A stretch of 64,000 bases of DNA from Trueperella bonasi. GTDB taxonomy: Bacteria; Actinomycetota; Actinomycetes; Actinomycetales; Actinomycetaceae. Each line of letters begins with the position of its first letter. Position 1 is the stretch's first letter. Both the position numbers and the translations under genes were made by a program. Below, in pieces: positions 1,750 through 29,861 of this stretch. A model generated the notes under the pieces. It had not been told where the DNA came from, did no database searches, and saw only the letters and a list, made by a program, of their open reading frames with translations. The stretch is from positions 1,302,001 to 1,366,000 of the forward strand of contig NZ_JAUSQX010000001.1 in the NCBI RefSeq assembly GCF_030811535.1. Reading direction: 5' to 3'.

Positions 1750-1965
1750 AGGTCCTCTTTCAACTGGCCCGGTTAAAGCTAACCAGATGCGTGCAATTTC
1801 TTCGGAATCCCCGCGGTATCAACCTCTGCAAAATGTTGTCCGCGCGTCTCAACACCGTGGTAAGAGGCATTGGCGGAGCTCCGACTAGGCGTTGGCGGTG
1901 TCGAAATTAGTCGGCGGCCAATGGTAGATTCGAGGGTACGATTCGATCATCCCAACGGAGGGAAA

Positions 1966-4701
1966 ATGACAAAGTACGTATACGACTTTACCGAGGGAGA
2001 CAAAGAGCAGAAAGACCTGCTTGGCGGTAAAGGCGCAAATCTTGCCGAGATGACCAACTTGGGCCTGCCAGTCCCACCCGGCTTCACGATTACCACAGAG
2101 GCGTGCCGGGTGTACCTGAAGAACGGGGAGTCGCCCGACGAGCTCGCGGTGCAGGTCACTGCGGCAATCCGCCAGGTTGAGGAGAAGATGGGGAAGGACC
2201 TCGGCGATCCGAAGGATCCGCTCCTGTTATCCGTCCGCTCCGGCGCAAAGTTTTCCATGCCCGGAATGATGGAAACCGTGTTGAACATCGGGTTGAATGA
2301 CGAGTCCGTGGTCGGCCTTGCCGAACAGTCTGGTGACGACCGGTTTGCCTGGGATTCATACCGACGCCTACTTCAGATGTTCGGCAAGACGGTTTTGCAC
2401 ATTGAGGGTGAACCTTTCGCCGATGCCTTGCATGCGCTCCAAGATGAGAAGGGCTATTCTGGCGATCCGGATATGACGACGGACGATCTGAAGCGCCTCG
2501 TGACAGAGTTTAAGACCATCATTAAGGACGAGACGGGGGGAGACTTCCCGCAGGATCCGCGCACTCAGCTTGACCTCGCAATTGAGGCCGTTTTTAACTC
2601 ATGGAATACAGAACGTGCAGTAATCTACCGGCGCCGTGAGCACATTCCTGCCGATATTGGTACTGCAGTGAACGTGCAGACCATGGTCTTTGGCAACATG
2701 GGCGAAGGTTCGGGTACAGGCGTGTGCTTTACTCGTGATCCCTCTACCGGCCACTCCGGTGTTTACGGTGACTACCTAGAAGACGCTCAGGGCGAGGACG
2801 TCGTCGCTGGAATCCGTAACACCCTACCGCTGTCGGCGCTGGAGGAACTTGACAAGAAGTCCTACGACGAGCTGATCGCGATTATGGACAGGCTCGAAAC
2901 GCACTACCGAGATCTGTGCGATATCGAGTTCACAGTCCAGCGTGGCAAGCTGTGGATGTTGCAGACCCGTATCGGCAAGCGTACAGCAGCTGCCGCTTTC
3001 CGTATTGCTGACCAGCTTGTTGACGAAAAGCTCATCACTCGTGATGAGGCCGTGACCCGCGTGACCGGCGAACAGCTCACCGCACTGTTGTTCCCGCAGT
3101 TCGATAAGGATGCGAAGAAGATCGACATTTCGCGGGGTATGCCTGCTTCGCCAGGTGCAGCTGTCGGTGAGATCGTCATGGATAACGCTACCGCCGTCGA
3201 ACGTACCAAGGCGGGCGCCAACGTAATTTTGGTGCGTCGCGAAACCAATCCTGATGATCTCGAAGGAATGGTCGTTGCCGAAGGTATCTTGACTGCGCGC
3301 GGTGGTAAGACCTCCCACGCCGCCGTCGTCGCTCGTGGCATGGGCCGATGCTGTGTTGTCGGCGCTGATGATCTGGTGATCGATGAATCGGCGGGCACGA
3401 TGGACGTGAAGTCTACCGGCAAGCAGTACAAGGTTGGTGACGTGATCGCCATCGACGGTGCTTCTGGCGAGATTTTTGAAGGTGACGTGCCGGTTACTGA
3501 TTCGCCTGTTACCGCCTACCTGACTTCCGGTCTTGAAGCTGGTCTTGAAGCCGCGCCGGACGAGGGAGCGAAAGAGCTCGTCCACGCCGTTGACCGCATT
3601 TTGACGCACGCTGATTCCAAGCGCCGCATGAAGGTACGCGCCAATGCGGATAGCCCCGAAGACGCCAAGGCTGCTCGCGATTTCGGTGCCGAAGGTATCG
3701 GCCTATGCCGTACCGAGCACATGTTCCTTGGCGAGCGCCGCAAGCTCGTTGAAGAAATGATCCTTGCGAAGGACGCCGAAGCCCAGGCGGCCGCGTTGGG
3801 GAAGCTGCTGCCGCATCAGCGCGAGGACTTCATCGGTATTTTCGACGCGATGGATGGCCTGCCTGTTACAGTCCGGCTGATTGACCCGCCGCTGCATGAG
3901 TTCCTGCCAGATCTCACGCAACTATCGGTGGATATTGCCGTCAAGGAGGCTAAGGGCGAGGAGGTTACCGACGAGGAATACGAGCTCCTTCGCGCGGTTC
4001 GCCAGAATCACGAGCAAAACCCGATGCTCGGCCTACGAGGCGTACGTCTCGGGTTGAAAATTCCCGGCCTGATCAAACTTCAGGTGCGTGCGATCGCCGA
4101 GGCTGCGGCCAAGCTTGTTAAGGAAGGCAAGGATCCTCAGCCGGAGATCATGGTTCCGTTGGTTGGCGCGATTCGCGAAATGCAGATTGTACGGGAAATG
4201 ACGGAAGAGGTTATCGCGGAGGTTGAAAGCGAAACCGGAGTCAAGCTCGATATTCCGATTGGCAACATGATCGAGCTTCCGCGTGCTGCCATCTCAGCCG
4301 ACACGATTGCGACCGAGTCCGACTTCTTCTCGTTCGGCACGAATGATCTCACGCAGACCGCGTGGGGCTTCTCGCGTGACGATGTGGAAGGCGCGTTCTT
4401 CAACGAGTACTTCGACTACGGAATCTTCGGTATTTCGCCATTTGAATCCGTGGATCTTGGTGGCGTTGGGCCGCTCGTTGACATTGCGGTTGAGCGTGGC
4501 CGTAACACCAAGCCCGATCTGAAGATGGGCGTGTGTGGTGAGCATGGCGGTGACCCGCACTCGGTTCACTTCTTTGAGAAGGTGGGCCTCAACTACGTGT
4601 CGTGTTCGCCGTTCCGCGTGCCGATCGCTCGGCTTGAGGCGGGGCGTGCGGCCATCGACAACGAGACCACCTACCTCACGCAGTTCGATCCGCGGAACTA
4701 G
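1966..4701 (+). CDS. ppdK: pyruvate, phosphate dikinase
   Basis: Reversibly converts pyruvate, ATP and phosphate to PEP, AMP and pyrophosphate in the cytoplasm. The 911-residue product has the full three-domain layout. The N-terminal ATP-grasp domain begins with GGKGANLAEM. The central swivelling domain carries the phospho-histidine loop GGKTSHAAVVARGMG (His451). The C-terminal PEP-binding barrel has the catalytic cysteine in GVCGEHGGDP (Cys857). An in-frame start at 1870 is possible, but ATG 1966 follows GGAGGG at 1957-1962 and matches the family N-terminus. TAGATT (1925-1930) is a possible -10. No PPDK regulatory protein gene is adjacent. The ppa pyrophosphatase in this window could pull the reaction toward PEP, which also feeds DhaM; that link is inference. 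Confidence 0.97.
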   Translation: MTKYVYDFTEGDKEQKDLLGGKGANLAEMTNLGLPVPPGFTITTEACRVYLKNGESPDELAVQVTAAIRQVEEKMGKDLGDPKDPLLLSVRSGAKFSMPGMMETVLNIGLNDESVVGLAEQSGDDRFAWDSYRRLLQMFGKTVLHIEGEPFADALHALQDEKGYSGDPDMTTDDLKRLVTEFKTIIKDETGGDFPQDPRTQLDLAIEAVFNSWNTERAVIYRRREHIPADIGTAVNVQTMVFGNMGEGSGTGVCFTRDPSTGHSGVYGDYLEDAQGEDVVAGIRNTLPLSALEELDKKSYDELIAIMDRLETHYRDLCDIEFTVQRGKLWMLQTRIGKRTAAAAFRIADQLVDEKLITRDEAVTRVTGEQLTALLFPQFDKDAKKIDISRGMPASPGAAVGEIVMDNATAVERTKAGANVILVRRETNPDDLEGMVVAEGILTARGGKTSHAAVVARGMGRCCVVGADDLVIDESAGTMDVKSTGKQYKVGDVIAIDGASGEIFEGDVPVTDSPVTAYLTSGLEAGLEAAPDEGAKELVHAVDRILTHADSKRRMKVRANADSPEDAKAARDFGAEGIGLCRTEHMFLGERRKLVEEMILAKDAEAQAAALGKLLPHQREDFIGIFDAMDGLPVTVRLIDPPLHEFLPDLTQLSVDIAVKEAKGEEVTDEEYELLRAVRQNHEQNPMLGLRGVRLGLKIPGLIKLQVRAIAEAAAKLVKEGKDPQPEIMVPLVGAIREMQIVREMTEEVIAEVESETGVKLDIPIGNMIELPRAAISADTIATESDFFSFGTNDLTQTAWGFSRDDVEGAFFNEYFDYGIFGISPFESVDLGGVGPLVDIAVERGRNTKPDLKMGVCGEHGGDPHSVHFFEKVGLNYVSCSPFRVPIARLEAGRAAIDNETTYLTQFDPRN

Positions 4702-23360: not shown

Positions 23361-23861
23361 ATGAAAAATCTGCTCGCACAGGACGTGCAATTCACCCCGT
23401 TGCACCCCAAGTTTACGAATGTTACCGTCATTCGATGGGGCTCCTTGGCTCTCGTGGTTCTCATTGCTGCGTTAGTGGCAGCTATTGCCGGGAGCCGGTT
23501 TTCTGGCAGTAATGGCTGGCTATGGTGGCTCGCCGTCGTCGTAGCGCTCGGGGTCGGCGTCTGGGCCATATGGCTCGCGGTACGCCGGGCGCGCGTTTTT
23601 GGCTATGCCGAGCTCGAGGATGAACTGCTCATCCGCTCCGGCATCATGTTTCACCGCGTGACCGTGATTCCCTATGGCCGGATGCAACAGGTGAACGTCG
23701 AAACGGGGCCGCTGCTCAAACGATACGGTTTGGCCTCAGTCGAGCTTGTGACGGCCTCTGCAGACACGAATGCCGAGATCCCCGGCATAACACTCGAAGA
23801 GGCCGAACGCCTCCGCGAAAAACTCACCGCGCTCGGTGAAGCGAACATGGAGGGCCTGTGA
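23361..23861 (+). CDS. PH domain-containing membrane protein (bPH2, YdbS-like)
   Basis: 166 residues. Two hydrophobic helices (about 28-48 and 52-72) are followed by one bacterial PH-like domain (AELEDELLIRSGIMFHRVTVIPYGRMQQVNVETG…). YdbS/YdbT pairs occur widely in Gram-positives; their function is poorly known. The ATG follows a -10 box by six bases and is probably leaderless. The gene overlaps the next by four bases (GTGA), so the two products likely form a complex; that is inference. Confidence 0.85.
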   Translation: MKNLLAQDVQFTPLHPKFTNVTVIRWGSLALVVLIAALVAAIAGSRFSGSNGWLWWLAVVVALGVGVWAIWLAVRRARVFGYAELEDELLIRSGIMFHRVTVIPYGRMQQVNVETGPLLKRYGLASVELVTASADTNAEIPGITLEEAERLREKLTALGEANMEGL

Positions 23862-25561
23862 TCCCGCACGACGAACCCGAGACTCAGCCAGCCGCCAACG
23901 AAACGCAGCCGCAGGTGCCGCCGACGTCGGGCAAAAGTGGTTTGGGCGGATCAGTGCCGGAGGGCGCCTGGCGAAAATTCCACAAAGTTACCCCGCTTGC
24001 GCAAGGTGGCGCGCTGTGGGTGGTCCTCGCGATCTTCGTTTATAACGTAGTCACGCAAATTATTGAATCTGGTTTGACCGAAATGCTCGAAAGGGTTGGC
24101 GATATTACGCTCACCTTCGTGCTCGCTATCTTGGGCGCTTTGCTCGCACTGACTTTGCTCGTTATCTTTTTCTCGTGGATTTCGTGGCGGTACCAGTCGT
24201 TCGCGATTATCGACTCCGGCATCCACAAGCGTTCGGGCGTACTGCTGAAGAATCATTCGCACATGCGCTGGGATCGCATCCAAACTGTTGAGATCGAACA
24301 GAAGCTGTTTGGGCGGATCTTCGGTTTCGGATCGGTCAAGGTCGAGTCGGCGGGCTCGGAGCCGGCTACTGAACTCGGACTGCTGACCATGGAAGACTGC
24401 GGCAAACTACGCCGGGAAATTCTTACAGGACTGGGCAACGCCCGGGCCGGTAGACCGATCGGTGTGGGCGTACCGGTCAGTGCCGTCGTCGGCGCCAACA
24501 CCGTGGAAGCAATCCCCGAGGGTGCGGGTGTGCCGCTCGCGCCTGATTCGCAGACGCCGCCAGATTTAGACACTATGGGTGCTGCGGCGTTGGACTGCAC
24601 GGGTATGCAATCCGGTATGCAGAGTGGCGAGATCCCCGTTTTTGACCCCGACGACCTCGAAACCGATCAGAAAATCTTCGAACTACCCACATCGCGTCTA
24701 ATTGTCTCGGCGCTACTTCAACTCGGCCGCATTCTCGCCCTGTTATTCATGGTTGTCTTCATCGTGATTGCAATCGTGTCTGGCGAAATGGGCTTCCTCG
24801 CCATCGCGCTTGGTGTCGGTTCGGGCGTGTTCGTGCTGGTGAAAGCGAGTATCGACTCATACGGAACGAAGGTCTATCTCTCGCGTAACGGCTTACGTGT
24901 ACGCGCAGGCTTGACAACCCTCGTCACCCGTTCCATCCCGCCGCAGCGCTTGCACGCGATCGAAATCCGCCAGCCGATGTTGTGGCGCCGTGCAGACTGG
25001 TGGCAGTTGCGTGCGGTGCTCGCCGGCGGCCAGTTTGATTTAGATAGTTCAAGCGATGCTGGCGACGCGATGATTATTCCAGCAGGCACCCGCGAAGACG
25101 TGCTGAAAGTGCTGTGGACGATGCTCCCGTCGGCCGGCACCGACGACGACGCCACGCTCATCCGCGACGCCTTCGACGGCAGCGGCACGGGCGAGTTCTT
25201 CTTAAGCGCGCCGCGAAAGGCACGCTGGCTCGATCCGATCACCTGGAAATCGCGCGGAATTTGCCTCACGCCGAACGTGGCTGTGTTCCGCACCGGCCGG
25301 TGGAGCCGCCGTGTCGTGTTCGTGTGGCAGGATCACACGCAGTCGCTACGGATGAGCCAGGGGCCACTGCAACGGTTGTTCGGGCTCGGGGCGATCCAAC
25401 TCGATCTGGTCTCGCCGTTTATGGACGCGGGCCAGAACAATATGGCTGTCGAAGATGTGGAGCGCATGATCTGGATCGAAAACGACCTGACTGCGCAAGC
25501 TCGCAATCGAGGCGTATCTGAGTCGATCGAAGCGTGGCAGCGCCGAGTTGGCCTCGATTAG
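23858..25561 (+). CDS. PH domain-containing membrane protein with three bPH2 domains (YdbT-like)
   Basis: 567 residues from GTG 23858. The N-terminal ~40 residues are polar and Pro/Gln-rich. A helix pair (~50-105) leads into a first PH-like domain (IIDSGIHKRSGVLLKN…), then an acidic/Gly-rich linker (~200-260). A second helix pair (~275-325) leads into a second PH-like domain (…RNGLRVRAGLTTLVTRSIPPQ). A third domain lies in the last ~110 residues (…VFRTGRWSRRVVFVWQDHTQ). This matches the YdbT plan. Translationally coupled to the smaller partner upstream. Function unknown. Confidence 0.85.
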   Translation: MIPHDEPETQPAANETQPQVPPTSGKSGLGGSVPEGAWRKFHKVTPLAQGGALWVVLAIFVYNVVTQIIESGLTEMLERVGDITLTFVLAILGALLALTLLVIFFSWISWRYQSFAIIDSGIHKRSGVLLKNHSHMRWDRIQTVEIEQKLFGRIFGFGSVKVESAGSEPATELGLLTMEDCGKLRREILTGLGNARAGRPIGVGVPVSAVVGANTVEAIPEGAGVPLAPDSQTPPDLDTMGAAALDCTGMQSGMQSGEIPVFDPDDLETDQKIFELPTSRLIVSALLQLGRILALLFMVVFIVIAIVSGEMGFLAIALGVGSGVFVLVKASIDSYGTKVYLSRNGLRVRAGLTTLVTRSIPPQRLHAIEIRQPMLWRRADWWQLRAVLAGGQFDLDSSSDAGDAMIIPAGTREDVLKVLWTMLPSAGTDDDATLIRDAFDGSGTGEFFLSAPRKARWLDPITWKSRGICLTPNVAVFRTGRWSRRVVFVWQDHTQSLRMSQGPLQRLFGLGAIQLDLVSPFMDAGQNNMAVEDVERMIWIENDLTAQARNRGVSESIEAWQRRVGLD

Positions 25562-25674: not shown

Positions 25675-28173
25675 CTAGCTCGACGCGGCCTTACGGACCG
25701 CCTGCTTGATTCGCGGTACCAGGCTTGGGCGCACAGATAGCTCGCGCACACCCGCCGCCAACAGTTGCGGCACGTGCTCCTCGGACGAGGCAAGATCGCC
25801 GCATACCGATATCGGCTTATCGAGATTGTCCACCGCGTTTGCGATCAGGTCGATAACCAGTGGCACGACATCACCGGCCAGCCCGGCAACTTCTGCATTG
25901 CCCCGATCGGCGGCGGCGATGTACTGAATCAGGTCATTAGTACCAACCGATACGAAATCGACCAACTCGTTGAACTCGGCGATCCGAAGTGCCGCGGCCG
26001 GTGTTTCGAGCATCATGCCGAACTCGGGCAACTCCTCCGGGCGCCCCTCAAGCTGGACGGCATCGTGAAACTTCTCCCGTGCCCACGCAAGCTCCTCAAC
26101 CGTCGTGATCATCGGAACCATCACCTTGATCTGCGCACTTTGCGCCACCTGAATGATGGCCCGGAACTGATCTACCAGCGCGTCCGAGTACCGGCGCATG
26201 AGCCTGATTCCCCGCACGCCCAAGAACGGGTTTTCTTCGGGTTCGGCGGCAAAGAAGGGGAGAGGTTTATCTGCACCTACATCCCACGTGCGAATCGTGA
26301 TCGGCTTGTCGGTGCCGATCTGCTCGGCAATCTCGGTGAAAACCGCTACCTGTTCGGGGATCGTTGGCACGTCGTCGTGATCTGCGAAAAGCACTTCGGT
26401 ACGTACTAGGCCCGAACCGTCGGCGCCGTTCGCGCGGGCCGTGCCGGCATCGCTTTCCATCGCCACATTCGCCGCCACCACAACGACTTCCTCGCCGTAC
26501 AACGCGGGCTCGTGCGCGTGCTTCAACGCCTCGGCGTCTAGGCGCTGCTGCTCCTTCGAGGCGCGCAACAATTCGCTCAACTGTGCGCGCGAGGGATTCA
26601 CCGTGACCATTTGGCTACGCGGTTCGAGCGCCACCTCTTCGCGATCGTTGATCTCCCGTGCCTTTGCAAAGCCCGCTATCACGGGTATGCCCTTGGTGGC
26701 AGCGATCAGCGCGCCATGCCCCGTTGCTGAACCCGTGGCTGCCACGATCCCCATAACGCTGCCTTCGTCGATTTCCGAGGCGAGCGCTGGCGTCAACGAT
26801 TCGAGCACAACGACGGGTGGCGTTCCCAGTTCTTCGATCGCCTTTGCAAGTCCGCCGAGTACCTCACCTCGCAATGCCTGCATGAGTAATTCACCGAGCG
26901 CGTTTACATCTTCGGCCCGTTCGCGCAGATAGTCGGTGGGAAGATCGCCATACGCGGCGGCGAGGGCCGCTGTAGCAGCGCTGACGGCGACCCCGGCCGG
27001 AATACCGTTCTTTATCCGCGCGCTGATATCTCCCGCATACGTGGGATCATCGAGCAGTCCGAATTGAAGCGCCAACATTGGATTCTCGCCAAGCGAGTTC
27101 AAATATTCGCGCACCAGTTCGCGTGCGGTTTCGAAAGCCTCACCCTGGTCGTGTGCAATTTCCTGAGCCCCAGACTGCTGGCCGGGCCGCCACACAAGCG
27201 CGGGGCCAACAGCGATATCAACGCTCGAGGTCGGTTTGCGAGTATGGGCAGGTACCGCTGAGACTTCGGTTTTCTTCTCACCCTCGGCCGTCCAACCGCG
27301 GGCAGCTAATTCGCCGACGGCGTCGAGGGCCTTGTTCGCATCCAGGCCCGACGCCTGGACGAGAATCTCTCCGCCGCCCTGCACGCCGAGCGAAATGAGG
27401 GAGGTCATCGAATTTGCCAGGTTCGGCCCGCGCCCGGCCTTCTCATTGGCCACCCGCACCTGCGCGTCCAGCCCAGAAATCGCCCGCACGAGTGCCGCCG
27501 CCGGCCTGGCATGGAGACCAGCCGGATCGTCGACGACGTACCGGCGGCTCGTCCACTCGACTCCCTCTGCATCCGTGATGCCAGTTCCTGGCTGGTCGCC
27601 CGTTGAGCTCGCGCTGTCCGCCGAGCCCGAACCGTCCGCCGAGCCCGAACCGTCCGCCGAGTTTTGGCCGCCCACAGTGCCGTCCAAATCCGTGCCGTCC
27701 GAATCCGTGCTGTCCACCGAACTAGCTCTGCCGGCCGTACCCGCACTGCCCGGCGACCCACCTCCGTCGTAGGGAATATCCGTTTCCTTCGCGGCTAACG
27801 CCCCCATCGCTTCGCCCGCAACCGTTGCGCGATCTGCGCCCGCTCCGGCTGCTACGGCCGCCACCACGAGCCCCTCGACGAGGGGAGCGGGAACGACAGT
27901 CGTACGCTCGGCGATATCCGGATCGATGAACTCGAGCGCCATTTCGGTTGACATGACGGCCGAGCCGAGATCTACCAGCACCACGACGCCCGCTTCCGAA
28001 TCAGCTTCCTCAATAGCGTTCGCAATCAGTTCCGCGTTGGTGCCAAAACTGCCGTCATCCGTACCACCGGCGGCCACGACGACGGCGTCCCTGCCCATAT
28101 CGAGGGCAAGATCGCGCGCCGCAACCGCCAGCGGCTGTGAATGAGAGACGGCAACAAGGCCGACGTTAGCCAT
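25675..28173 (-). CDS. dhaM: DhaM with fused HPr and complete enzyme I (PTS phosphotransferase of dihydroxyacetone kinase)
   Basis: 832 residues carry a whole phosphorelay from PEP to DhaL-bound nucleotide. Residues 1-130 are the EIIA-type DhaM domain, phospho-site His11 in VSHSQ. Residues ~135-205 are a Ser/Gly/Asp linker with SADGSG repeats. Residues ~208-295 are HPr, His221 in AGLHARPA. Residues ~318-540 are the enzyme I N-domain, His486 in SATGHGALI. Residues ~555-832 are the enzyme I PEP-binding barrel, with SVGTNDLIQY and Cys791 in SVCGD. E. coli DhaM stops after a truncated enzyme I; here the barrel is complete. ATG 28173 has GGAGG upstream. Last gene of dhaKLM. Confidence 0.92.
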   Translation of the reverse strand: MANVGLVAVSHSQPLAVAARDLALDMGRDAVVVAAGGTDDGSFGTNAELIANAIEEADSEAGVVVLVDLGSAVMSTEMALEFIDPDIAERTTVVPAPLVEGLVVAAVAAGAGADRATVAGEAMGALAAKETDIPYDGGGSPGSAGTAGRASSVDSTDSDGTDLDGTVGGQNSADGSGSADGSGSADSASSTGDQPGTGITDAEGVEWTSRRYVVDDPAGLHARPAAALVRAISGLDAQVRVANEKAGRGPNLANSMTSLISLGVQGGGEILVQASGLDANKALDAVGELAARGWTAEGEKKTEVSAVPAHTRKPTSSVDIAVGPALVWRPGQQSGAQEIAHDQGEAFETARELVREYLNSLGENPMLALQFGLLDDPTYAGDISARIKNGIPAGVAVSAATAALAAAYGDLPTDYLRERAEDVNALGELLMQALRGEVLGGLAKAIEELGTPPVVVLESLTPALASEIDEGSVMGIVAATGSATGHGALIAATKGIPVIAGFAKAREINDREEVALEPRSQMVTVNPSRAQLSELLRASKEQQRLDAEALKHAHEPALYGEEVVVVAANVAMESDAGTARANGADGSGLVRTEVLFADHDDVPTIPEQVAVFTEIAEQIGTDKPITIRTWDVGADKPLPFFAAEPEENPFLGVRGIRLMRRYSDALVDQFRAIIQVAQSAQIKVMVPMITTVEELAWAREKFHDAVQLEGRPEELPEFGMMLETPAAALRIAEFNELVDFVSVGTNDLIQYIAAADRGNAEVAGLAGDVVPLVIDLIANAVDNLDKPISVCGDLASSEEHVPQLLAAGVRELSVRPSLVPRIKQAVRKAASS

Positions 28174-28248: not shown

Positions 28249-28863
28249 TTAGTGAGCGAAAGCTTCCGCGGCGGCTTCGATCAGAAGAACCGACGATGCC
28301 GAACCCGGATCCTTCACGCCCCTCGATCGTTCGCCAAGATACGATGCCCGCCCTTTCCGAGCGATCATCGGGATGGTATCTTCGGCACCCTTTTCGGCCG
28401 CCTCGAGTGCCGCAGCAAGTGCCGTCGACAACGGGCCGTCACTTGCCTCGCCGGCTTCGAGAGCGGGGAACCACACGTCAAGCATCGTTTTATCTCCGAC
28501 CTCGGCCTTTCCACGAGCTTGCAGGCCCTCAACCCCGGCGCGAAGCGCAGCAAAGAAAGAGTCCTTGGTCAGTTCGCTATCGCCGAGCGCTCCGCCCATT
28601 TTCATGAGCAACGTGCCGTACAACGGGCCGGAGGCGCCACCAACTTTGGACACCAGCGCCATGCCGGCCTTCTTCAGATAAGCGCCCGCATCCGCCATCG
28701 AATCCGCGTCCAGCTCAGCAACTGCGGCCACGCCTCGAACCATGTTCGAACCGTGATCGGCGTCGCCAATCTGCCGGTCAAGATCGGTCAGCTCGGCGGC
28801 GTTAGCGTCGATTTTTTCTTTGAACGCGGCCATCCAGGCCGAAAATTGTGAAAGATCAGCCAC
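28249..28863 (-). CDS. dhaL: dihydroxyacetone kinase ADP-binding subunit
   Basis: DhaL holds ADP/ATP, is rephosphorylated by DhaM and passes phosphate to dihydroxyacetone on DhaK. 204 residues from GTG 28863, which overlaps the dhaK stop (TAGTG). A longer in-frame opening at 28953 would run antisense-free into the dhaK tail and adds nothing like DhaL. The metal-binding acidic residues are in DRQIGDADHGSNM, with the KVGGASGPLYGTL loop and the late RKGRASYLGERSRGVKDPG segment typical of the family. Confidence 0.95.
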   Translation of the reverse strand: MADLSQFSAWMAAFKEKIDANAAELTDLDRQIGDADHGSNMVRGVAAVAELDADSMADAGAYLKKAGMALVSKVGGASGPLYGTLLMKMGGALGDSELTKDSFFAALRAGVEGLQARGKAEVGDKTMLDVWFPALEAGEASDGPLSTALAAALEAAEKGAEDTIPMIARKGRASYLGERSRGVKDPGSASSVLLIEAAAEAFAH

Positions 28864-29861
28864 TATGCACCCCACCGAAGCCCGGTGGTCACAACGGGAG
28901 CGTCCCAGAGGCGGAGCAGTTCGTCGTCGGCCTTCAGCAGGGAAAGCGCACATCCAGCCATGTCGAGCGAAGTGACGTAATTGCCCACGAGTACGCGTTC
29001 GACCTTAACGCCCGCTTCCTCGAGAAGCTTGGCGCACTCGCCCCACATGAGGTACAGCTCCGAAAGCGGCGTGCCGCCCATGCCGCCAAGCAAGGCGACG
29101 ACGGGAGCACCCGTGAAGTCATAATCGGAAATGATTGGCTTAACCAGTTCCGCGGCCAGCTCGTTCGCTTCTTGAAGCTCGCGGCGCTCGCGCCCCGGTT
29201 CGCCGTGGATGCCGATGCCCAGCTCGATCTCGTTTTCTGCAAGATCGAAGGTCGGCTTGCCCGCGGCTGGAACGGTGCACGAGGTGAGCGCGAGACCGTA
29301 CGAACGAGTATTATCGGCGGCCTTCTGCGCGACGGCGGTTACGGCGTCGAGATCGGCGCCTTCTTCGGCGAGCGCTCCCGCGATTTTCTCCACGAAGAGT
29401 GTTCCACCGACGCCGCGACGGCCGGCAGTGTACAGCGAATCCTGGACGGCGACGTCGTCTTCTACAATTACCGAAGTAACTTGCGTGTTCTCCATGTCGG
29501 CAGCCATTTCAGCGGCCATTTCGAAGTTCATCACGTCACCGGTGTAGTTCTTGACGATGTGCAAAACGCCCTTGCCGGTATCTACCTTCGTGGTTGCTTC
29601 CATGATCTGATCGGGAACAGGGGAGGTAAACACCTCGCCGCAGACGGCTGCATCAAGCATTCCGGTTCCTACAAAACCGGAATGGAGGGGTTCGTGACCA
29701 GCGCCGCCGCCGGAAATAATGGCGACCTTGCCATCCTTGGGTTGCTTGCGGTAAACGATATGATTGTCGAGATCGACGTCGAGCTCGTTCGGGTGGGCTA
29801 AGGCCACTCCCTTGAGGGAATCAGTGACCACATCATTGGGGTTATTGATTAGTTTCTTCAT
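28863..29861 (-). CDS. dhaK: dihydroxyacetone kinase substrate-binding subunit
   Basis: DhaK binds dihydroxyacetone covalently through a histidine. 332 residues. The substrate-loop [13 protein letters not shown] (His56, His60) and the hemiaminal-forming His219 in [11 protein letters not shown] are present, as are [11 protein letters not shown] and the RWGA C-terminus. First gene of dhaK-dhaL-dhaM. The start ATG 29861 has no Shine-Dalgarno sequence and lies six bases after a -10-like GAGAAT, so it may be leaderless. The product DHAP joins glycolysis, as does that of GlpABC. Confidence 0.96.

What the first reader, a model, noticed from the sequence alone, without database searches (positions are those of the whole stretch)
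25675..28173. All-in-one DhaM carrying EIIA, HPr and full enzyme I
All four phosphotransfer sites needed from PEP to DhaL are in one chain: enzyme I barrel with Cys791, His486, HPr His221 and EIIA His11. E. coli DhaM lacks the PEP-binding barrel and depends on general enzyme I and HPr. Here dihydroxyacetone phosphorylation could run independently of any general PTS, and in cis.
Basis: partly seen in the sequence, partly recalled or inferred. Interest (0 to 1): 0.5.

Follow-up and report, generated by a model that had tools for sequence, protein, structure and literature searches.

The report
Self-contained PEP-driven dihydroxyacetone kinase donor
One protein carries every relay station needed to pass phosphate from phosphoenolpyruvate to a small-sugar kinase, in a bacterium where no other general enzyme of that relay was found; the design was already known, but it seems to let several bacterial lineages keep this kinase after losing the rest of the sugar-transport system.

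Summary
The minus-strand ORF 25675-28173 (832 aa, last gene of dhaK-dhaL-dhaM) holds EIIA-man, HPr and a complete enzyme I, with His11, His221, His486, Cys791 and the PEP-site residues in place. In the genus 8 of 9 genomes have the fusion; 4 of these 8 have no separate EI or HPr. Among 76 DhaM-bearing actinobacterial genomes, 20 of 34 with a fused DhaM lack a separate EI, against 0 of 42 with a short DhaM. The architecture is not new: IIA-Man/HPr/EI fusions beside dihydroxyacetone-kinase genes were described in 2008 (PMC2405797). That such a fusion can be a genome's only PTS I did not see in print (nine searches, listed under Tried and rejected). Activity, and transfer within one chain, are untested.

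The parts
25675..28173 (-). dhaM, 832 aa, EIIA-man / HPr / full enzyme I fusion
27820..28161 (-). EIIA-man domain (residues 5-118), phosphorylation site His11
   Evidence: PF03610 E 3.4e-22; TIGR02364 112 bits, cut-off 98.25
27304..27549 (-). HPr domain (residues 209-290), His221, Arg223
   Evidence: PF00381 E 1.2e-17; both residues 56 of 56
26917..27219 (-). enzyme I N-terminal (HPr-binding) domain, residues 319-419
   Evidence: PF05524 E 5.4e-11; structure match 1zym Z 19.5
26626..26814 (-). enzyme I phosphohistidine (mobile) domain, residues 454-516, His486
   Evidence: PF00391 E 6.8e-11; aligned with E. coli EI His189
25687..26508 (-). PEP-binding barrel, residues 556-829, with R591, R628, E723, N746, D747, R757, C791
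   Evidence: PF02896 E 6.8e-77; these residues 56 of 56
28249..28863 (-). dhaL; likely GTG start at 28863 overlapping the dhaK stop by one base (a longer ATG-start form to 28953 is also open)
   Evidence: TIGR02365 227.8 bits, cut-off 138.3; start read
28863..29861 (-). dhaK, 332 aa
   Evidence: TIGR02363 473.6 bits, cut-off 406.25

Best explanation
This is the phosphoryl-donor subunit of a PEP-dependent dihydroxyacetone kinase that brings its own complete PTS relay. PEP phosphorylates His486 of the enzyme I part, which passes the phosphate to His221 of the HPr domain, then to His11 of the EIIA domain, then to the ADP bound in DhaL, and DhaL/DhaK make dihydroxyacetone phosphate. No other EI or HPr that could feed DhaM was found in the genome, so the relay must be self-sufficient if the kinase works at all. 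Shown here: the domains, the catalytic residues, the operon, the absence of other EI, HPr, PTS_EIIC and PTS_EIIA_2 domains at profile sensitivity, purifying selection on every domain, and the association of the fusion with lack of a separate EI. Inferred: the chemistry, the order of transfer (from the known families), and whether transfer runs inside one chain or between chains of a dimer.
For: Domains and residues. EI fold. Gene order dhaK-dhaL-dhaM with DhaK and DhaL over their curated cut-offs; DhaK and DhaL genes lie within the fetched flanks of 37 of 45 named fused loci. Own genome, one contig, 99.99% complete: one PF00381 hit and one PF05524 hit, both inside DhaM; PF02896 twice, DhaM and a PPDK; no PF02378 or PF00359. 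Genus: 8 of 9 genomes have the fusion, 4 of the 8 without separate EI and HPr. Survey: 20 of 34 fused-DhaM genomes lack a separate EI versus 0 of 42 short-DhaM genomes, Fisher p 1.3e-9; at 90% completeness or more 16 of 30 versus 0 of 39, p 7.6e-8. All 20 also lack a separate HPr. dN/dS by domain 0.06-0.24 in the three pairs that include a PTS-less species.
Against: No biochemical test. The EI part scores 312.5 on the NCBIfam enzyme I equivalog model, below its cut-off of 341.7, and the T-S-H around the phosphohistidine of E. coli EI reads T-G-H in 8 of 8 genus members, so its catalytic rate cannot be assumed. Absence rests on profile searches; a very divergent EI or HPr could be missed (the EI N-terminal domain of one fused DhaM, G243, was missed by PF05524). 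The Fisher tests treat related genomes as independent. In 8 of 45 named fused loci DhaK and DhaL are not both in the fetched flanks.
Confidence: 0.85

Rival explanations
1. The enzyme I and HPr parts serve as the cell's general EI and HPr in trans for other PTS permeases, with the kinase as one client among several.
For: They are the only EI and HPr found in the genome. One fused-only genome, G098, does hold a PTS_EIIC, so such use is conceivable there.
Against: No PTS_EIIC (PF02378) and no PTS_EIIA_2 (PF00359) in the own genome; across the 20 fused-only genomes PF02378 is absent in 19 and PF00359 in 20. Other permease families (such as PF03611, PF04215, PF03609, PF00358) were not searched.
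Confidence: 0.06
2. The enzyme I part is a relic or only a regulatory module; the kinase gets phosphate otherwise or is not functional.
For: The EI part falls below the NCBIfam enzyme I cut-off, and its N-terminal domain has the highest dN/dS in four of the five pairs (up to 0.24).
Against: The phosphohistidine and seven named barrel residues plus Lys636 are 56 of 56; barrel dN/dS is 0.06-0.17 in five pairs; the fusion is kept intact in 4 genus members in which no other EI was found.
Confidence: 0.06
3. The protein works as described but depends on transfer between chains (dimer or higher oligomer), so 'in cis' is wrong although 'self-contained' is right.
For: Enzyme I dimerises through its barrel (recalled; dimer entries 2kx9 and 2l5h are among the matches). 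The stretches 129-195 and 303-317 have pLDDT under 50 and could be flexible tethers that let domains reach either chain.
Against: None from sequence; the two routes give the same sequence signature.
Confidence: 0.5

Closest known systems
Multiphosphoryl transfer proteins (MTPs) with IIA-Man domains, Comas et al. 2008 (PMC2405797)
   Same: IIA-Man, HPr and EI in one chain, beside dihydroxyacetone-kinase genes; the paper calls the association invariable (passages and section 13 read).
   Different: The passages read do not discuss genomes where this is the only EI/HPr. For Actinobacteria they name IIA-Man/HPr proteins of L. xyli and C. diphtheriae. In my sample 8 of 45 named fused loci do not have both kinase genes in the fetched flanks.
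E. coli DhaM (YcgC; NF008478, 473 positions)
   Same: EIIA-man and HPr domains; donor for DhaL in a DhaKLM kinase.
   Different: E. coli DhaM has a truncated EI (passage of PMC13099321) and relies on general EI and HPr (recalled). This protein scores 191.3 against a cut-off of 520.
Enzyme I of the PTS (ptsI; 2hwg, 2xdf)
   Same: Same fold and PEP-site residues.
   Different: Fused behind EIIA and HPr; below the NCBIfam cut-off (312.5 versus 341.7); phosphohistidine context T-G-H instead of T-S-H.
M. smegmatis PtsT (EIIA, HPr and EI domains, function unknown), as cited in PMC13099321
   Same: A fused EIIA, HPr and EI in an actinobacterium (passage read).
   Different: Which EIIA class PtsT carries, and whether it lies beside dhaKL, was not checked.

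Membership tests
DhaM, phosphoryl donor of PTS-dependent dihydroxyacetone kinase (TIGR02364) | EIIA-man domain of the DhaM type over the curated cut-off | tested here: met
   112 bits, cut-off 98.25
DhaM, phosphoryl donor of PTS-dependent dihydroxyacetone kinase (TIGR02364) | Gene beside dhaK and dhaL | tested here: met
   In four genus members looked at, a DhaL ORF adjoins in 4 of 4; DhaK was called in 2 of 4, my overlap filter having kept other ORFs in the other two
DhaM, phosphoryl donor of PTS-dependent dihydroxyacetone kinase (TIGR02364) | Transfers phosphate to ADP on DhaL | not testable with these tools
   Needs purified proteins
IIA-Man multiphosphoryl transfer proteins (Comas et al. 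2008) | IIA-Man, HPr and EI in this order in one chain | tested here: met
IIA-Man multiphosphoryl transfer proteins (Comas et al. 2008) | HPr domain falls in the IIA-Man MTP clade | not tested
   Only EI parts were put in trees
Enzyme I (PTS_I_fam, TIGR01417) | Score over the curated cut-off | tested here: not met
   312.5 bits, cut-off 341.7; so filed as DhaM with an EI part, not as a ptsI equivalog
Enzyme I (PTS_I_fam, TIGR01417) | Phosphohistidine and PEP-site residues, EI fold | tested here: met
E. coli-type DhaM (NF008478) | Score over the curated cut-off of the 473-position model | tested here: not met
   191.3 bits, cut-off 520

The most novel reading that the evidence does not exclude
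The fused DhaM is a complete single-chain PTS relay that has repeatedly outlived the general PTS: lineages lost ptsI, ptsH and sugar permeases but kept PEP-driven dihydroxyacetone phosphorylation because all its carriers sit in one protein. The architecture may even have arisen twice in Actinobacteria, a second group (L100, L115, L170, L177) having captured a general-type enzyme I (not established: AU p 0.211).
Probability: 0.6. Interest if true: 0.5.

Novelty: new member of a known kind. Interest (0 to 1): 0.4.

Why it matters
It gives a natural minimal PTS, PEP to substrate through one relay protein plus DhaL/DhaK, in organisms where no other EI or HPr was found to confuse the assay. It also shows that genomes that look PTS-less can retain a likely PEP relay inside dhaM, and turns the idea that fusing carriers protects a pathway from loss of shared components into a countable prediction: 20 of 34 versus 0 of 42.

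Tried and rejected
Two independent origins of the fusion were tested and not established. In the quick tree of 58 rows the starred branches force 2 changes, but in the careful tree of 31 rows they force only 1; 4% of 200 bootstrap trees hold the fused rows as one side of a branch; the AU test does not reject one clade (p 0.211).

Viral contigs: 7 stretches matched a pattern, none encodes a relative. Barabote and Saier 2005 is not held.

How the 76 genomes were chosen. Class survey: 127 of 394 genomes match TIGR02364 at E 0.001 (81 over the cut-off); 18 were first taken as fused by frame length, 4 as intermediate, and of the other 105 I used 37, one per genus. Ten fused genomes came from the order survey and 7 from the genus besides the own genome. 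Reassigned: G488, first listed as fused, has no HPr or EI in that frame and was counted as short, giving 42 short = 37 + 4 + 1. Left out: G056 (62% complete, fusion cut by its contig) and G154 (90% complete, no EI or HPr domain at all). G202's DhaM runs off its contig, so its barrel is unseen beyond R591. G185's separate EI is a fragment of 149 aa. G243's EI N-terminal domain was not found by PF05524, but its frame carries the EI residues. G251, G363 and G172 carry a second, short DhaM as well and were counted as fused. The fused set is not exhaustive. Whether an EI lies inside or outside the DhaM frame was judged by me from the coordinates.

Of the 80 named loci my motif filter called 45 fused, 22 short and left 13 uncalled.

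Papers: the searches for a statement that a fused DhaM is a genome's only PTS were made; none was seen in the listings or in the passages read of five papers (PMC5720513, PMC4777399, PMC2405797, PMC13099321, PMC3863723).

Full report
What is there. The ORF 25675-28173 on the minus strand encodes 832 aa. Pfam finds EIIA-man (5-118), HPr (209-290), enzyme I N-terminal domain (319-419), phosphohistidine domain (454-516) and PEP barrel (556-829), each over its curated cut-off. It is the third gene of dhaK (28863-29861), dhaL (GTG start probably at 28863, overlapping the dhaK stop by one base) and dhaM; DhaK, DhaL and the DhaM EIIA exceed their NCBIfam cut-offs. AlphaFold2 (alignment A3, 56 sequences) gives mean pLDDT 86 and pTM 0.67; the segments under pLDDT 50 are 129-195 and 303-317. 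Residues 317-832 match full enzyme I structures (2hwg Z 33.9, rmsd 8.0, 477 aligned; 2wqd, 316-832, Z 32.9, rmsd 4.7, 509 aligned) and 317-545 match the E. coli EI N-terminal domain (1zym, Z 19.5, rmsd 2.6, 216 aligned). So the EI part is complete, although its first segment is too divergent for phmmer, whose alignment starts at residue 371.

Catalytic residues. In A3, His221, Arg223, His486, Arg591, Arg628, Lys636, Glu723, Asn746, Asp747, Arg757 and Cys791 are 56 of 56, and His11 is 55 of 55 (one row trimmed by me; its untrimmed form has it). S255 and D739 are 54 of 56 and T484 47 of 56. The 39 named rows were picked with a filter that included G[TS]ND, so Asn746/Asp747 are partly selected for; two rows (L012, L084) are identical in the EI part. 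Twelve further fused proteins, outside A3, were aligned: 11 show the same twelve residues (these eleven and His11), and the twelfth (G202) is cut off by its contig end after R591. The assignment of these residues to E. coli EI functions is recalled; the alignment itself is.

Does the genome have another EI or HPr? None was found at the sensitivity of Pfam profiles. The genome is one contig of 1,903,164 bases, 99.99% complete. PF05524 and PF00381 each hit once, inside DhaM. PF02896 hits twice, in DhaM and in a pyruvate phosphate dikinase at window 1870-4701. PTS_EIIC (PF02378) and PTS_EIIA_2 (PF00359) are absent. Of the 14 control genomes, PF05524, PF00381, PF02378 and PF00359 rang in 7 (E. coli, B. 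subtilis and C. glutamicum among them) and PF02896 in 14.

Genus. Of 9 genomes, 8 carry the fusion (frames of 798-856 aa). Four (G002, G149, G150, G153) also have a separate EI (frames 563-584 aa), separate HPr and two PTS_EIIC each. Four (own, G123, G151, G152) show no separate EI, no separate HPr and no PTS_EIIC. G154 (90% complete, 360 contigs) shows none of these, the fusion included. In one search the 8 genomes from other genera of the family all show an EI-like match in a frame of 567-647 aa, so a general EI is probably ancestral there. In the quick EI tree G151 is sister to G149 (SH-aLRT 99) inside the PTS-bearing group (100, 4 rows; G150 was not in the tree), which points to loss of the general PTS in G151 with DhaM kept. 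dN/dS (Nei-Gojobori) by domain is 0.06-0.18 for G151/G149 and 0.06-0.24 for own/G152; dS exceeds 1 in most values outside G151/G149, and one value (G002/G153) is saturated.

Survey. TIGR02364 matches 127 of 394 class genomes at E 0.001, 81 over the cut-off. I examined 68 DhaM-bearing genomes for PF05524, PF00381 and PF02378 and added the 8 fused genus members; the choice of genomes is told under Tried and rejected. Of 34 genomes with a fused DhaM, 20 have no separate EI; of 42 with a short DhaM, 0 (Fisher p 1.3e-9). At 90% completeness or more: 16 of 30 versus 0 of 39 (p 7.6e-8). Genera with at least one such genome: 14 of 20 fused versus 0 of 40 short; families: 13 of 17 versus 0 of 18; some genera and families are in both sets. 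All 20 lack a separate HPr, 19 of 20 lack PTS_EIIC (G098 is the exception), and of the 14 fused genomes with a separate EI 14 have a separate HPr and 12 a PTS_EIIC. PF00359 is absent in 20 of 20 fused-only genomes. Genomes are related, so the p-values are optimistic; families f17, f19, f27 and f47 each hold both a fused-only genome and a short-DhaM genome.

Elsewhere. Named records with the fusion include Kribbella, Gordonia jacobaea, Mycolicibacterium canariasense, Actinoplanes, Pseudonocardia oroxyli, Nocardia transvalensis, Chloroflexota MAGs, a Treponema MAG and cyanobacterial MAGs. DhaK and DhaL are both within the fetched flanks in 37 of 45 such loci. Of the other 8, L125 shows DhaL at its contig start, L086 shows DhaL at the edge of the fetched stretch, and six (L085, L097, L108, L113, L114, L122) show neither, so the neighbourhood is usual but not universal.

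Prior art. Comas et al. 2008 (PMC2405797; passages and section 13 read) describe multiphosphoryl transfer proteins with IIA-Man domains as invariably associated with dihydroxyacetone-kinase genes and note that the E. coli form lacks the EI domain. PMC13099321 (passages) cites a fused EIIA-HPr-EI of unknown function in M. smegmatis. The architecture is therefore known. I saw no statement, in the searches listed under Tried and rejected, that it is the sole PTS of a genome.

How it works. The best reading is a relay PEP > His486 > His221 > His11 > ADP on DhaL > dihydroxyacetone on DhaK. The last two steps are as described for DhaKLM in a passage of PMC3863723. Each step is inferred from family knowledge; independence from a general PTS is inferred from genome content. 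Whether transfer is within one chain or across a dimer is open.

Noticed in passing
L100, L115, L170, L177 (fused DhaM of two Propionibacteriaceae records and of G009, G111): Their enzyme I parts group with actinobacterial general enzyme I rather than with the other fused DhaMs, suggesting a second capture of EI; one clade is not rejected by the AU test (p 0.211).
   Followed up: partly
G098, contig C147:624-1433: A genome in which the only EI and HPr found are inside DhaM still holds one PTS_EIIC, so trans use of a fused DhaM by a permease is worth testing there (90% complete, fragmented).
   Followed up: no
Literature: PMC5720513 (passages read): Actinotignum schaalii is reported to have dhaK and dhaL but no dhaM, EI or HPr; a fused dhaM filed under another name could have been overlooked. 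Whether it belongs to this window's genus is not known.
   Followed up: no
window 1870-4701: Pyruvate phosphate dikinase, the only other PEP-barrel protein found in the genome; it could make or use the PEP that DhaM needs.
   Followed up: no
window 23361-25561: Two adjacent bacterial PH-domain (bPH_2) proteins, the second with two matched stretches, convergent with dhaM.
   Followed up: no
DhaM residues 131-206 (window 27556-27783): Ser/Gly/Asp-rich linker with repeated SADGSG units between EIIA and HPr, very variable in length within the genus.
   Followed up: no
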